A stretch of DNA of 64,000 nt from assembly GCF_900637185.1 (NCBI RefSeq), contig NZ_LR134352.1, positions 1,302,001-1,366,000 on the forward strand, written 5' to 3'. The number at the start of each line of letters is the position of its first letter. Position 1 is the stretch's first letter. The stretch is from Nocardia asteroides (lineage in GTDB: Bacteria > Actinomycetota > Actinomycetes > Mycobacteriales > Mycobacteriaceae). This document shows, piece by piece, positions 6,597 through 11,611 of this stretch. The notes below the pieces were generated by a model that made no database searches, was not told where the DNA came from, and saw only the letters and a program-made list of their open reading frames with translations. The translations under genes were made by a program, and so were the position numbers.

Positions 6597-7853
6597 ATGG
6601 CCGTTGGTCGCATCTTGCGCGTGCTTGCCGCTGCGAGCGTGTTGGCCGGTTCCGCGCTACTCGGGCCCGCCGTCGCGTTCGCCGCGCCGGAGAAGCCACC
6701 CACTCCCGCCGCTCAGGCGCCCGGGAGCGGTAGCAGTGGCAACGGCAGCAACGGTCAGGGCGACAGCGGTCCGACCACCGGCAACGGCAAACCCCAGGAG
6801 TTGCGGCTGCCCAGCGGTTCGGCAGGCGGTGACCAAGGCACCCAGGGCGGTGACGACAGTCAGGGCGTCGGCACCGACCCCGTCGATCCACAGCGGCCAG
6901 CGGGCGCGCCGGTCGCGGGCGAGGGTGAGTGGCAGCCGCTGACGATTCCCGGCCAGTCCACCGCCGATGTTCCCAAGAAAGAGGTCGCGGGCACCGGCTC
7001 CGCGGCCGCCGGTTCGGCCGCCGCCGCGGGTTCGGCGGGCGCTGCCGCGGTCCTCGGCACCGGTTCGGCGGGCATCGGCCTGCTGATCGGCACCGGTTCG
7101 GCCGGTGTCGGCGCCATCCTCGGCACCGGCTCGGCCGGTGTGGCCGCCGTCCTCGGTACCGGTTCCGCCGGCGCCGCCGCGGTCCTCGGTACCGGTTCCG
7201 CCGGTGCCGCCGCAGTGCTCGGTACCGGTTCGGCGGGCGCCGCCGCCGTGCTCGGGACCGGCTCGGCAGCAGTCGGCTCCGCCGCCGTCGGCACCGGCTC
7301 GGCCGCGCTCGGCCTCGGTGCCGCGCTGCTCGGAACCGGTTCCGCCGCAGTGGGTTCCGCCGGTATCGGTTCGGCAGCCGTCGGCTCCGCCGGCGCGGGC
7401 TCGGCGGCGGTCGGCTCCGCGGCCGTCGGTTCGGCCGCGGTCGGTTCGGCCTCGCCGCTGCTGTTGCTGCTGATCCCCCTCCCGTCGGTCCCGGCCGCGC
7501 CCGCGTTGCCGCCGATCGCCATTCCGCCCGCGCCCACCGCACCGTCGGTGCCCTCGGTGCCGAATATCGTTGTGGCCGCACCGGTTCCGCCGGAAGCGCC
7601 AGCAGCGCCCGCACCCGCCGCGGCACCTGCCGCCGCCCCGGCGCCGGCTCCGGCCGCCGCGCCGAACCACGCTTTCAAGCCGACCAGTGACAACAGCGGG
7701 CTGCCCGAGCCCAAACTGCTGTCGGTGATCGGTGGGCTGATCGCCCTGACACTGGCCGGAACCGGTTCGGGCGCAGTGAGTTTCCAAGGTGCCGCGGCTG
7801 CCCAGGCTCGGGTCAACGCGGCGCGTGCCGAATTCTTCGGACCCAGGTCGTGA
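6597..7853 (+). CDS. Secreted protein with 11-residue GTGSAG repeats
   Basis: 418 aa, not recognised as a named family. Layout: an N-terminal signal peptide (MAVGRILRVLAAASVLAGSA, cleavage near AFA-APEK), a Gly/Ser/Asn-rich linker, six exact-length 11-residue repeats GTGSAGxxxVL (residues 154-219) and looser GSAAV copies to about 285. Next come a short LLLLL segment, a Pro/Ala-rich stretch and a C-terminal hydrophobic helix (LLSVIGGLIALTLAGTG) with a short tail. The repeats alternate small and hydrophobic residues as in glycine-zipper or self-assembling proteins. A good AGGGGA site precedes the ATG. It is the first gene of a tight operon with a metallopeptidase and a membrane protein. The function is unknown; a surface or membrane-assembled structural protein is an inference. 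Confidence 0.8.
   Translation: MAVGRILRVLAAASVLAGSALLGPAVAFAAPEKPPTPAAQAPGSGSSGNGSNGQGDSGPTTGNGKPQELRLPSGSAGGDQGTQGGDDSQGVGTDPVDPQRPAGAPVAGEGEWQPLTIPGQSTADVPKKEVAGTGSAAAGSAAAAGSAGAAAVLGTGSAGIGLLIGTGSAGVGAILGTGSAGVAAVLGTGSAGAAAVLGTGSAGAAAVLGTGSAGAAAVLGTGSAAVGSAAVGTGSAALGLGAALLGTGSAAVGSAGIGSAAVGSAGAGSAAVGSAAVGSAAVGSASPLLLLLIPLPSVPAAPALPPIAIPPAPTAPSVPSVPNIVVAAPVPPEAPAAPAPAAAPAAAPAPAPAAAPNHAFKPTSDNSGLPEPKLLSVIGGLIALTLAGTGSGAVSFQGAAAAQARVNAARAEFFGPRS
7056..7253 (+). repeat. Six tandem 33-bp coding repeats
   Basis: Six consecutive 33-bp units (7056, 7089, 7122, 7155, 7188, 7221), each encoding GTGSAG plus five small or hydrophobic residues. The last three units encode identical GTGSAGAAAVL peptides with different synonymous codons. 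The repeat is therefore kept at protein level, but the array could still change copy number by slippage. Confidence 0.85.
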
Positions 7854-7864
7854 GGGGATCTTCG

Positions 7865-8380
7865 ATGAGCAAGAGCAAGACCCAGAGCACGTCGAGGTCC
7901 TACCGCCGCGTCGCCGCCGCCGTCGACGCGGTGTGCGCGGTCGCCGCCGACTCCGACGCGACGACCCTCGATGAGGTGGTCGCCGCGATCTCCCTGGAGC
8001 GGCAGCGCGAAATCGAGATCACCAGTGCGCAATTGGGCCCCGGCGTGTGCGGCCAGCGGCGCTTCTATCCCGAGCGCGACATCATCGTGCTCGCCGACGC
8101 GCTGCCCAGCCGCGACCACACCCTGGCCCACGAGCTGGGCCATATCGTCTTCGACCACGAGGGCGCCCCCGCGGTGGAGACGACGCTCGAGGTCAGCGAC
8201 GACCTGATCGCCTACATGCTCAGCCAGCGCGCGCACGCCCAGATCGTCGACGACGGCGCCGACGACCTCGCCGAATGGGAGGCCGAGACCTTCGCGGCGA
8301 TGCTGATGACCCGGCTGCGCGTGTTCAACAACCGGGGCGCAGGCGTCTCGGTCCTTCGATTCGATGAGGCGCTCGGATGA
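7865..8380 (+). CDS. ImmA/IrrE-type zinc metallopeptidase
   Basis: 171 aa. The zinc motif is HTLAHELGHIVFDH (His89, Glu90, His93), and EWEAETFAAMLM downstream supplies the conserved glutamate of the ImmA/IrrE family (DUF955). Members cut or displace HTH-type repressors, as ImmA does with ImmR. An XRE-like regulator gene (EspR-like) lies 1.2 kb downstream on the other strand and is the natural candidate target. The ATG at 7865 is preferred over the GTG at 7850 because GAGGGG lies just upstream. It starts 11 bp after the repeat-protein stop and overlaps the next gene by ATGA, so the three are one operon. Confidence 0.85.
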   Translation: MSKSKTQSTSRSYRRVAAAVDAVCAVAADSDATTLDEVVAAISLERQREIEITSAQLGPGVCGQRRFYPERDIIVLADALPSRDHTLAHELGHIVFDHEGAPAVETTLEVSDDLIAYMLSQRAHAQIVDDGADDLAEWEAETFAAMLMTRLRVFNNRGAGVSVLRFDEALG

Positions 8381-9411
8381 CTCTGTGGTTGACAGCCCTG
8401 CTGGTCTGGGTCGCCGCGGGCGCGCGCGTGGGTCGGGTGCTGGTGAAGCCGGCGACGACCGCCCGCGTGGCCATCGTCGTCGCGGTGTCGGCCGTCGCGC
8501 TCGCGGCGACCGTCGCGATTCCCGATATCGCGGTGGCCGTCGACAATCTGCTGCCCGGCGGTGTGCGCGGCGGCTGGCTGTCCACCGGTGTCGTGGCCTC
8601 GGCCTGGATCCTGTTCACCACCGCCACCTCGGTGGTCGCCTCGGCGGCGTGGCCGGTGGTGTCGCGGCGCAATCTGCGCCAGATCGCCCTGGTGATCTAC
8701 GGCCTCGGCGCGCTCGCCATCGCCATCACCCTGGCCTGGTCGTTCACCTTCGGCTGGATCGTGGTGGCCCTGGGCGCGGTGTTCATCGTGACCACCGGTC
8801 TGCGCAATCTGGACTGGACCACGCTCGGTCGCGGCATCGCGATCTACACGGCGGGAACGGCTTTGGTCGCGGTGCTCGCGGTCGCCAACGCGGGCCGGGG
8901 TTTCCAGGACGCCGAGCCCACGCCGCCCGGCCAGCCCACCTGGGGCTGGCAGGCGTGGGAGATCGCCGGCCTGCTGATCGCGTTCGGCGCGGTGTCGATC
9001 GTGGTGGAGCTGTGGTGGCGGGCGCGGATTCTGTTGCGCCGGATCCGGCCGCTGCACAAGCTGATGGTCGGCCGCTTCCCCGATGTGGTGGCCCCCGAAC
9101 AGAACGCGACCTCCACCCAGCTCAAGGCCTCCGACCATGTCGCCCAGGTGATGGACGCGCTGTATCTGCTCTCCGGCAGCGGCATCGTCATCCCCGCCGC
9201 GGGCGAGCCGCCCACCTCGGTGCCCGAGCGGGCCGCGGTGGTGGCGGAGTGGGCGCGAGATCCATTGGGGGACTTGTTCGTCGACGCGCGCTGGATCGCG
9301 CCGCCGCCCGGGGTGAGCCCCCGCGGCTGGGTGCTGGCGATCGCGAGCGAGTACGACGCGGCGGTGGCCGCCGCGAAATCCACGCCCAAGAGCGCGGCCG
9401 CGCCGAGCTGA
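8377..9411 (+). CDS. Polytopic membrane protein (MAB_1171c-like)
   Basis: 344 aa. About seven hydrophobic helices fill the first 215 residues (WLTALLVWVAA, VAIVVAVSAVALAATVAI, a helix around ASAWILFTTATSVVA, and others), followed by a soluble C-terminal part (WRARILLRRIRPLHKLMVG onward) ending in an Ala-rich tail. The arrangement, several helices then a cytoplasmic domain with an LWW/LRRIRPL entry and a partner metallopeptidase, resembles actinobacterial MAB_1171c-type putative transporters that travel with XRE regulators and ImmA peptidases. The start overlaps the peptidase stop (ATGA). It could be a sensor or exporter of the module; nothing in the sequence decides. Confidence 0.7.
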   Translation: MTLWLTALLVWVAAGARVGRVLVKPATTARVAIVVAVSAVALAATVAIPDIAVAVDNLLPGGVRGGWLSTGVVASAWILFTTATSVVASAAWPVVSRRNLRQIALVIYGLGALAIAITLAWSFTFGWIVVALGAVFIVTTGLRNLDWTTLGRGIAIYTAGTALVAVLAVANAGRGFQDAEPTPPGQPTWGWQAWEIAGLLIAFGAVSIVVELWWRARILLRRIRPLHKLMVGRFPDVVAPEQNATSTQLKASDHVAQVMDALYLLSGSGIVIPAAGEPPTSVPERAAVVAEWARDPLGDLFVDARWIAPPPGVSPRGWVLAIASEYDAAVAAAKSTPKSAAAPS

Positions 9412-9433
9412 TTCGACGTCATACGCCGACAGA

Positions 9434-9476
9434 GAACGGGCCTGAGGTGGTGGATCACACCGTCTCAGGCCCGTTC
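9434..9476. terminator. Bidirectional terminator
   Basis: Perfect 13-bp arms gaacgggcctgag (9434-9446) and ctcaggcccgttc (9464-9476), 17-nt loop, between the convergent membrane-protein and espR-like genes. Confidence 0.8.
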
Positions 9477-9554
9477 ACTGGGTACGTATCCGTCTTGCCC
9501 GGCCGGACCCGGTACACCACCTACGGGTGCTTCGAGCCGACCGCTGTGTGTATC

Positions 9555-9971
9555 CTATTCCGTTCCGTCCGGAGGAATTTCGGGCAAGCCTTCGCTGGCC
9601 CGCAACTTCTCCGCCATGGAGGTGAGCAAATTCTGTGATTCTTCCGAGAGGTCGAATGCCCTGCTGGACAGTCGACGCAGCCCGTAGCCCTGCAACTGCG
9701 CGAGCAGTTCCAGGTCGTGATCGATCTTGGCCGCGTAGATGTCGTTGAAGAAGTAGTCAGGCTTGACCTTGAAGAACTTCGCCAGGGCGGCCACCGTCTC
9801 GTCGGACGGGTTGGTTCGTTGTCCCGACCGCAACTGCGAGAGATACGGCTTCGAGATCGGATGCCCGGAGGCAGTCAGCGCAGCCGCAACCTCTGCGTTG
9901 GTGTGCGGCTTGCGCCCCGGGGGATGCACGGTTTCGAACAGCTTGTTCAGCCGCGCCGCGAAATCAGCCAT
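9555..9971 (-). CDS. espR: EspR-like nucleoid-associated regulator
   Basis: 138 aa and close to mycobacterial EspR along its length: FAARLNKLFETVHPPGR, then HTNAEVAAAL, the recognition region ISKPYLSQLRSGQRTNPS (residues 39-56), a second helix pair around AALAKFFKVKPDYF, and the C-terminal dimerisation part (LRRLSSRAFDLSEE). EspR binds many sites, bridges DNA and controls ESX-1 and cell-wall genes in M. tuberculosis. Here its neighbours are a metallopeptidase and a membrane protein instead. I use the ATG at 9971 because the protein then begins at the same point as EspR; a GTG at 9995 is also in frame. Whether this is the sole genomic EspR or a module-specific paralogue cannot be told from the window. 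Confidence 0.82.
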   Translation of the reverse strand: MADFAARLNKLFETVHPPGRKPHTNAEVAAALTASGHPISKPYLSQLRSGQRTNPSDETVAALAKFFKVKPDYFFNDIYAAKIDHDLELLAQLQGYGLRRLSSRAFDLSEESQNLLTSMAEKLRASEGLPEIPPDGTE

Positions 9972-9993
9972 TGTGAGCCGCCCAATTCCCTTC

Positions 9994-10007
9994 ACTGTAC
10001 TAACAGT
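9994..10007. promoter_or_regulatory. Palindrome upstream of the espR-like gene
   Basis: ACTGT-ACTA-ACAGT, perfect 5-bp arms, 23-36 bp before the ATG. It is a possible autoregulatory site, supported only by symmetry and place. Confidence 0.4.
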
Positions 10008-10280
10008 CGTTATCTCGGATACGTATCATTGATATTAGCGGCTCAGTAACTGAAAACCTACGCCTGATTCGGGATTTCTCTGCGGTTTCCGACGCTCACC
10101 TGCGTGCAGGGGCCGCGACGGTCGCGTTTGCGGGTCACGCCAACGACTCTTGTGGAGCGTAGGGGTGCCCGAGTTCGTGCCCGTCGCGGGGTTCTTCAAC
10201 CTCGGGTCGATGGTAGCCCAATGTTAGCTGATGTCTCATGATCCCCCTCGCCCCCTGGATTGTGTGGCGTACGACACGTT
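10008..10280. other. Intergenic stretch without a recognised gene
   Basis: This 270-bp stretch between the espR-like gene and the fadA5 terminator has no ORF with coding character. Its left end is AT-rich for this genome (ATACGTAT and ATTGATATTAG near 10020-10040) and likely holds the espR-like promoter. The rest is GC-rich with no convincing RNA gene. Confidence 0.6.
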
Positions 10281-10319
10281 CCGGGCGCCCTGGGATGAAT
10301 GTTCAACCTGGGCGCCCGG
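10281..10319 (-). terminator. fadA5 terminator
   Basis: Perfect 10-bp arms ccgggcgccc (10281-10290) and gggcgcccgg (10310-10319), 18 bp past the fadA5 stop. Confidence 0.75.
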
Positions 10320-10336
10320 TTTCGGTGTGGGTCAGT

Positions 10337-11611
<1,275 letters not shown>

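What the first reader, a model, noticed from the sequence alone, without database searches (positions are those of the whole stretch)
6597..9971. Four-gene EspR / ImmA / membrane / GTGSAG-repeat module inserted in the sterol cluster
A secreted repeat protein, an HELGH metallopeptidase and a polytopic membrane protein form a tight operon (11-bp gap, then ATGA), with an EspR-like regulator convergent to them. In M. tuberculosis this place, between Rv3548c and fadA5, holds only ddn. ImmA-type peptidases relieve HTH repressors, so the peptidase may act on the EspR-like protein, the membrane protein may sense, and the repeat protein may be the effector at the surface. I know of no described system with this set.
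Basis: partly seen in the sequence, partly recalled or inferred. Interest (0 to 1): 0.78.

Follow-up and report, generated by a model that had tools for sequence, protein, structure and literature searches.

The report
EspR-linked membrane protease signalling module
Beside the gene for a DNA-binding regulator of the EspR family sits a conserved set of genes for a surface stalk protein, a multi-helix membrane protein and a zinc protease, which together look like an outside-to-DNA signalling line.

Summary
The four genes are real and intact at the stated coordinates. They form an old, conserved unit, not a recent insertion. In a draw of 151 family genomes, 36 carry this M78 (ImmA-like) type; in all 36 the membrane gene is the next gene and an EspR-family gene lies within 2 kb, in several different neighbourhoods. 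The 'secreted repeat protein' is better read as a single-pass membrane stalk: its low-complexity outer part varies freely, while its last hydrophobic segment and short tail (consensus ARAEFFG) are conserved. That tail is found in 35 of the 36 genomes and in 0 of the other 115 at E<=1e-5, also where it is unlinked from the locus. The membrane protein is modelled with seven long helices and is a distant relative of the MAB_1171c/DUF6545 family, below both curated cut-offs. In mycobacterial-type genomes the unit flanks the espR gene itself in 5 of 9. Best reading: stalk and membrane protein sense the envelope and control an M78 protease that acts on EspR. The unit is well supported; the protease-EspR step is inferred and untested. 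New variant of the known M78-protease/HTH-regulator switch.

The parts
6597..7853 (+). stalk protein, 418 aa: N-terminal hydrophobic segment, low-complexity A/G/S/P-rich outer part, C-terminal hydrophobic segment, short tail
   Evidence: only a sub-threshold Pfam hit (Pentapeptide_2, E=0.026). Signal peptide and topology judged by hydrophobicity only
7029..7305 (+). tandem repeat array inside the stalk gene, 33-nt unit, 8.3 copies
   Evidence: repeats also
7665..7850 (+). conserved C-terminal hydrophobic segment plus tail of the stalk protein (62 residues, model A3)
   Evidence: E=3.6e-26
7865..8380 (+). M78 (ImmA/IrrE-like) metallopeptidase, 171 aa
   Evidence: PF06114 above cut-off; HELGH and E137/E139/E141 invariant in 30 of 30 aligned rows; model closest to CapP and PprI
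8377..9411 (+). polytopic membrane protein, 344 aa, modelled with seven long helices and a helical C-terminal part
   Evidence: below the cut-offs of DUF6545 and MAB_1171c
9421..9489 (.). strong hairpin between the two converging genes, possible two-way terminator
   Evidence: inverted repeat I1; 143-nt stretch: -68.2 kcal/mol, z -3.97; not called by the terminator scan
9555..9971 (-). EspR-family regulator, 138 aa
   Evidence: 98.6-100% identical in the 13 Nocardia relatives compared
9972..10071 (-). strongly conserved promoter/leader of espR
   Evidence: 96-100 of 100 bases identical to 13 Nocardia relatives

Best explanation
The four genes are a membrane-to-DNA signalling unit. SHOWN by comparison: an old gene set that sits in several different neighbourhoods, in which a stalk protein, an M78 peptidase and a polytopic membrane protein go with an EspR-family DNA-binding regulator. 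INFERRED: the stalk reaches out with a flexible outer part whose sequence matters little; its conserved tail contacts the membrane protein and/or the peptidase under the membrane; a change at the envelope is passed on to the peptidase, which clips or disables EspR, perhaps in its C-terminal dimerisation part; EspR-controlled genes, probably including espR and the stalk operon, are reset.
For: 36 of 36 M78-positive genomes have the membrane gene as neighbour (gap -1 to 362 bp by match ends) and EspR within 1,977 bp, opposite strand in 31, same strand and in front in 5. Stalk directly upstream of the M78 gene in 33 of 36. Stalk tail at E<=1e-5 in 35 of 36 against 0 of 115, and in an order draw 14 of 15 against 0 of 185, including genomes where it lies away from the M78 gene (G031, G147; by coordinates also G340, G363, G374). 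Active-site residues invariant in 30 of 30 rows. PADLOC: M78 protein resembles CapP (6.4e-8), EspR resembles CapH (6.7e-5), a peptidase/HTH pair; model closest to CapP, E=2.8e-4. Of 20 class-level MAB_1171c loci 18 have an M78-like and 15 an EspR/XRE-like ORF nearby by profile. ImmA is required for proteolytic inactivation of ImmR (PMC2701414, passage); EspR without its last ten residues does not dimerise (PMC3315491, passage).
Against: No direct evidence that the peptidase cuts EspR. EspR occurs without the trio in 17 of 48 genomes with a close EspR, so it works without it. Only 12 of the 20 class-level loci show a HExxH-type motif by my pattern. No shared site was found in the espR and stalk promoters, and the published EspR consensus is not enriched in the window (8 found, 10.5 expected). 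The window's membrane protein misses both curated family cut-offs and its genome has no MAB_1171c match at E<=0.001. Presence/absence counts are not corrected for relatedness.
Confidence: 0.45

Rival explanations
1. Surface-protein assembly unit: the C-terminal hydrophobic segment and tail of the stalk are a sorting signal, the membrane protein and M78 peptidase process or anchor it, and EspR only sets expression of the operon.
For: Hydrophobic segment plus basic tail resembles sorting signals in layout; unlinked second stalk with the same tail in the window's genome (G000:C1:4103493); strict co-occurrence is also expected for a signal and its processing enzymes.
Against: Related M78/membrane/HTH sets across the class; no stalk was looked for there. 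No invariant Cys or His in the membrane protein alignment, as a known sorting peptidase would need (recalled). Always with EspR (36 of 36).
Confidence: 0.22
2. Stress or defence switch of the CapH-CapP / XRE-COG2856 kind: M78 and EspR are a repressor pair answering an internal signal such as DNA damage, and the membrane parts are the regulated output.
For: PADLOC resemblance to CapP/CapH; M78-XRE pairs are known as toxin-antitoxin-like modules (PMC2701414, passages); EspR-M78 pairs without the membrane genes exist in the family (L113-L119).
Against: Unit present in 10 of 10 same-genus genomes of the draw, not patchy within the genus; EspR and its leader almost unchanging, unlike mobile modules; no toxin or effector recognised among the four proteins.
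Confidence: 0.13
3. Mere neighbours: EspR has no functional link to the other three genes.
For: EspR is found without the trio in 17 of 48 genomes with a close EspR.
Against: The trio is never without an EspR-family gene (36 of 36), in several neighbourhoods and two orientations.
Confidence: 0.05

Closest known systems
M78 peptidase with XRE-type regulator (ImmA-ImmR of ICEBs1; IrrE/PprI-DdrO; XRE-COG2856 pairs)
   Same: M78 peptidase with intact active-site residues beside an HTH regulator gene
   Different: Two membrane components; regulator of the EspR family; gene order and orientation differ; cleavage not shown. DdrO cleavage is recalled.
CBASS regulators CapH-CapP
   Same: M78 protein hits capP (6.4e-8), EspR hits capH (6.7e-5); model closest to CapP 7t5t
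   Different: No defence effector recognised among the four proteins; membrane components instead
MAB_1171c family (NF042915) / DUF6545 membrane proteins
   Same: Distant similarity: 19 of 32 aligned relatives at E<=0.1, best 3.9e-11; same M78 neighbourhood
   Different: Window protein far below the cut-off (12 of 100 bits; DUF6545 18.2 of 24.4). Function of the family unknown; a MAB_1171c mutant formed about 50% less biofilm (PMC8707978, passages)
EspR (nucleoid-associated regulator of M. tuberculosis)
   Same: 53% identity over 126 residues; in mycobacterial-type genomes the same trio flanks espR
   Different: Different chromosomal place; binding sites and regulon in Nocardia unknown
BlaR1-BlaI; yeast Wsc1/Mid2 wall sensors (both recalled)
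   Same: Layout only: membrane input to a protease and HTH repressor; stalk, one membrane segment, short tail
   Different: No sequence relation was tested

Membership tests
M78 (ImmA/IrrE) peptidase | Pfam PF06114 above the curated cut-off | tested here: met
   27.9 bits, cut-off 22. The PDB profile search found no M78 chain and NCBIfam no family
M78 (ImmA/IrrE) peptidase | HExxH and downstream Glu conserved | tested here: met
   H89, E90, H93, E137, E139, E141 invariant in 30 of 30 rows; which Glu binds zinc was not determined
M78 (ImmA/IrrE) peptidase | Proteolysis of an HTH regulator | not testable with these tools
   needs biochemistry
EspR | Full-length similarity: N-terminal HTH and C-terminal part | tested here: met
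   query residues 3-129 aligned to 5-131 of 3qf3, E=4.3e-38
EspR | Binding to its own promoter at TTTGC[TC][GA] | tested here: inconclusive
   no exact match in 9972-10340; 8 in the window, 10.5 expected; binding itself not testable
MAB_1171c family (NF042915) | Score above the curated cut-off | tested here: not met
   12 of 100 bits; so not filed as a member
DUF6545 (PF20182) | Score above the curated cut-off | tested here: not met
   18.2 of 24.4 bits; so not filed as a member
7TM receptor fold | Significant structural match | tested here: inconclusive
CBASS CapH-CapP | Neighbouring CBASS cyclase and effector genes | not tested
   only the four proteins were scanned with PADLOC

The most novel reading that the evidence does not exclude
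A new class of bacterial transmembrane signalling: interchangeable surface stalks with one shared tail plug into a seven-helix membrane protein that gates a soluble M78 protease, whose target is EspR, a nucleoid-associated global regulator. Mycobacteria that keep the unit would control EspR itself this way; those that lost it would run EspR without this input.
Probability: 0.35. Interest if true: 0.85.

Novelty: new variant of a known kind. Interest (0 to 1): 0.62.

Why it matters
EspR is a global regulator first studied in M. tuberculosis, and no protease or membrane input to it turned up in the paper searches made here (listings and passages, open-licence papers only). The comparison supplies partners, present beside the mycobacterial espR gene in 5 of 9 genomes of that genus in the draw, and makes the question testable in harmless relatives. 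It would also suggest a role for the M78/MAB_1171c/HTH gene sets found in other Actinomycetes.

Tried and rejected
Recent insertion or mobile element: rejected, since 10 of 10 same-genus genomes of the draw carry the M78 type and EspR alone holds the same place in L074, L079 and L124. Secreted effector: disfavoured in favour of a membrane-anchored stalk. Structured RNA: three sub-threshold Rfam matches only, two miRNA families on the hairpin and one L31 leader. Terminator scan: does not call the hairpin. Shared operator of the espR and stalk promoters: not found; the 22-bp core of the espR leader occurs once in the genome. A spaced G[TC]TA repeat upstream of espR (23 of 36 loci, shuffled mean 0.14, largest 2) was chosen after looking, the loci are related, and its second half may be a -10 element, so it is not used as evidence. 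PDB by sequence profile: no M78 chain and nothing for the membrane protein. Foldseek for the membrane protein: nothing at E<=0.001. Paper search was swamped by unrelated words (immature; ESPR societies). An EspR-like partial match at G000:C1:6111830 (38% over 52 residues) was not resolved.
Full report
What is there. The window lies in a 6.98-Mb single-contig genome; all 15 titled records with a relative of the membrane protein are Nocardia, so it is probably a Nocardia (inference). Between an SDR gene (ending 6395) and a thiolase gene (minus strand, from 10337) lie a repeat-protein gene 6597-7853, an M78 peptidase gene 7865-8380, a membrane-protein gene 8377-9411 and, on the other strand, an EspR-family gene 9555-9971. 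A strong hairpin at 9421-9489 separates the converging genes, though the terminator scan does not call it.

The repeat protein is a stalk. Among the 36 genomes defined below, 33 have directly upstream of the M78 gene an ORF with the same plan: N-terminal hydrophobic segment, low-complexity middle, C-terminal hydrophobic segment and a short tail with consensus ARAEFFG; in G133 the contig end cuts it. The exceptions are G031, G147 and G014. For L059, L097, L098 and L101 my script's motif had missed the tail and the tail model found it. The middle is A/G/S/P-rich in Nocardia, N/G-rich in some other loci and T/P-rich in others. The two mycobacterial-type rows of the tail alignment are only 20-21% identical to the window's. 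Topology was judged by hydrophobicity only.

Conservation of the unit. In a draw of 151 family genomes the M78 protein was matched at E<=0.001 in 64, EspR in 108 and the membrane protein in 39. At E<1e-30 the M78 type of this locus is in 36 genomes, all fetched and mapped. The membrane gene is next to it in 36 of 36 (gap -1 to 362 bp by match ends). EspR lies within 1,977 bp in 36 of 36, on the opposite strand in 31 and on the same strand, in front, in 5 (G047, G074, G081, G095, G108). Seventeen lie in the sterol cluster by two or more sterol-gene matches; for G014 no such gene was on the fetched stretch. Five (G029, G052, G099, G112, G147) lie between GDT1/c24 and DUF6474 genes, with sodA seen beside them in L083; their EspR is 80-82% identical to that of M. 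tuberculosis, and over the nine genomes of that genus the range is 80-87%, so the genus is mycobacterial (inference). Four of the nine lack the trio. The rest lie elsewhere. Of 48 genomes with an EspR of 78% identity or more 17 lack this M78 type.

Co-occurrence of the stalk. A model of the 62-residue C-terminus (A3) hits at E<=1e-5 in 35 of the 36 genomes and 0 of the other 115; the miss, G014, is 66% complete. The search scores only the best candidates of a first look (at most 41 a genome), so absence is at that sensitivity; at E<=0.1 there are hits in 80 of 151 genomes, which I take as noise (lowest outside the 36: 0.001, G124). In an order draw of 200 genomes 14 of 15 with the M78 type (E<=1e-20) have the tail and 0 of 185 others; the miss is G386. 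Within genus g29 as listed there it is 11 of 12 against 0 of 9 (Fisher p=3e-5, not corrected for relatedness; the draws overlap). In G031 and G147 the only tail hits at that level lie away from the locus, and the coordinates say the same for G340, G363 and G374. The window's genome has a second stalk, with N/G-rich outer part and the same tail, at G000:C1:4103493.

Wider setting. MAB_1171c-type matches were found in 15 of 79 class genomes. Of the 20 loci returned, 18 have an M78-like ORF by profile (E<1e-3), 12 a HExxH-type motif by my pattern, and 15 an EspR/XRE-like HTH ORF by profile (E<1e-9) within the short flanks; 2 of the 20 are the mycobacterial-type unit itself. The profile may match HTH regulators in general. 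Other EspR-M78 settings in the family are same-strand pairs and sets with a PAP2-like gene (PAP2 26.4 bits, just under its cut-off of 27.2). So HTH/M78/membrane sets are a wider arrangement, and the stalk is an addition seen in this family; it was not searched for beside the class-level loci.

The espR leader. The 100 bp upstream of espR are identical at 96-100 positions between the window and 13 Nocardia relatives, although EspR fourfold sites differ at up to 33 of 72 and the next 60 bases match at only 26-58. ImmA values of that script for L055, L057 and L089, and the thiolase value for L055, come from offset matches and are not used. The 22-bp core occurs once in the genome. This is a strongly constrained promoter or leader, not a shown operator. 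The published EspR consensus is not enriched in the window.

Mechanism. ImmA is required for proteolytic inactivation of the XRE regulator ImmR (PMC2701414, passage); IrrE-DdrO cleavage is recalled. EspR lacking ten C-terminal residues does not dimerise (PMC3315491, passage), so a clip there would switch it off. Stalk and membrane protein would give the membrane input. Signal, order of events and cleavage are inferred.

Literature. MAB_1171c: one paper, mutant with about 50% less biofilm (PMC8707978, passages). DUF6545: none. EspR with IrrE: none. EspR with Nocardia: 7 papers, titles and abstract starts seen. EspR with Rv3849 and nucleoid-associated: 7; EspR with degradation: 64, 12 listed; ImmA/XRE/membrane terms: 5; EspR with Rv3847/Rv3848: 3. 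Of these PMC3315491, PMC2701414 and PMC8707978 were seen in passages, the rest as listings. The library holds open-licence papers only, so absence here is not absence from print.

Verdict. A real, conserved unit for which these searches found no description; a new variant of the M78-protease/HTH switch with membrane input; mechanism plausible but untested.

Noticed in passing
G000:C1:4103493-4103672 (L153, outside the window): A second stalk gene in the same genome, with an N/G-rich outer part and the same tail, and no M78 or EspR match by my profiles within the 10-kb stretch.
   Followed up: partly
window 9972-10071: The 100 bp upstream of espR are more conserved between Nocardia species than the fourfold sites of the gene itself.
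   Followed up: partly
L077, L086, L087, L088, L120, L121, L123, L126: Other EspR-like/M78 loci carry a PAP2-like membrane gene beside the EspR-like gene.
   Followed up: no
L074, L079, L124: EspR-family gene in the sterol cluster without the other three genes, so its place there does not depend on them.
   Followed up: partly
L109 (G065:C2:72362 and 146594): Two equally scoring EspR-like copies (77%) on a 175-kb second contig of a same-genus genome, possibly a plasmid.
   Followed up: no
L082, L127, L128: Another EspR-like family (about 30-36% to M. tuberculosis EspR); in L082 and L127 it lies near sodA, GDT1 and DUF6474 genes.
   Followed up: partly
G000:C1:6111830-6111985 (L003): Partial EspR-like match (38% over 52 residues), perhaps a remnant or a distant relative.
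   Followed up: no
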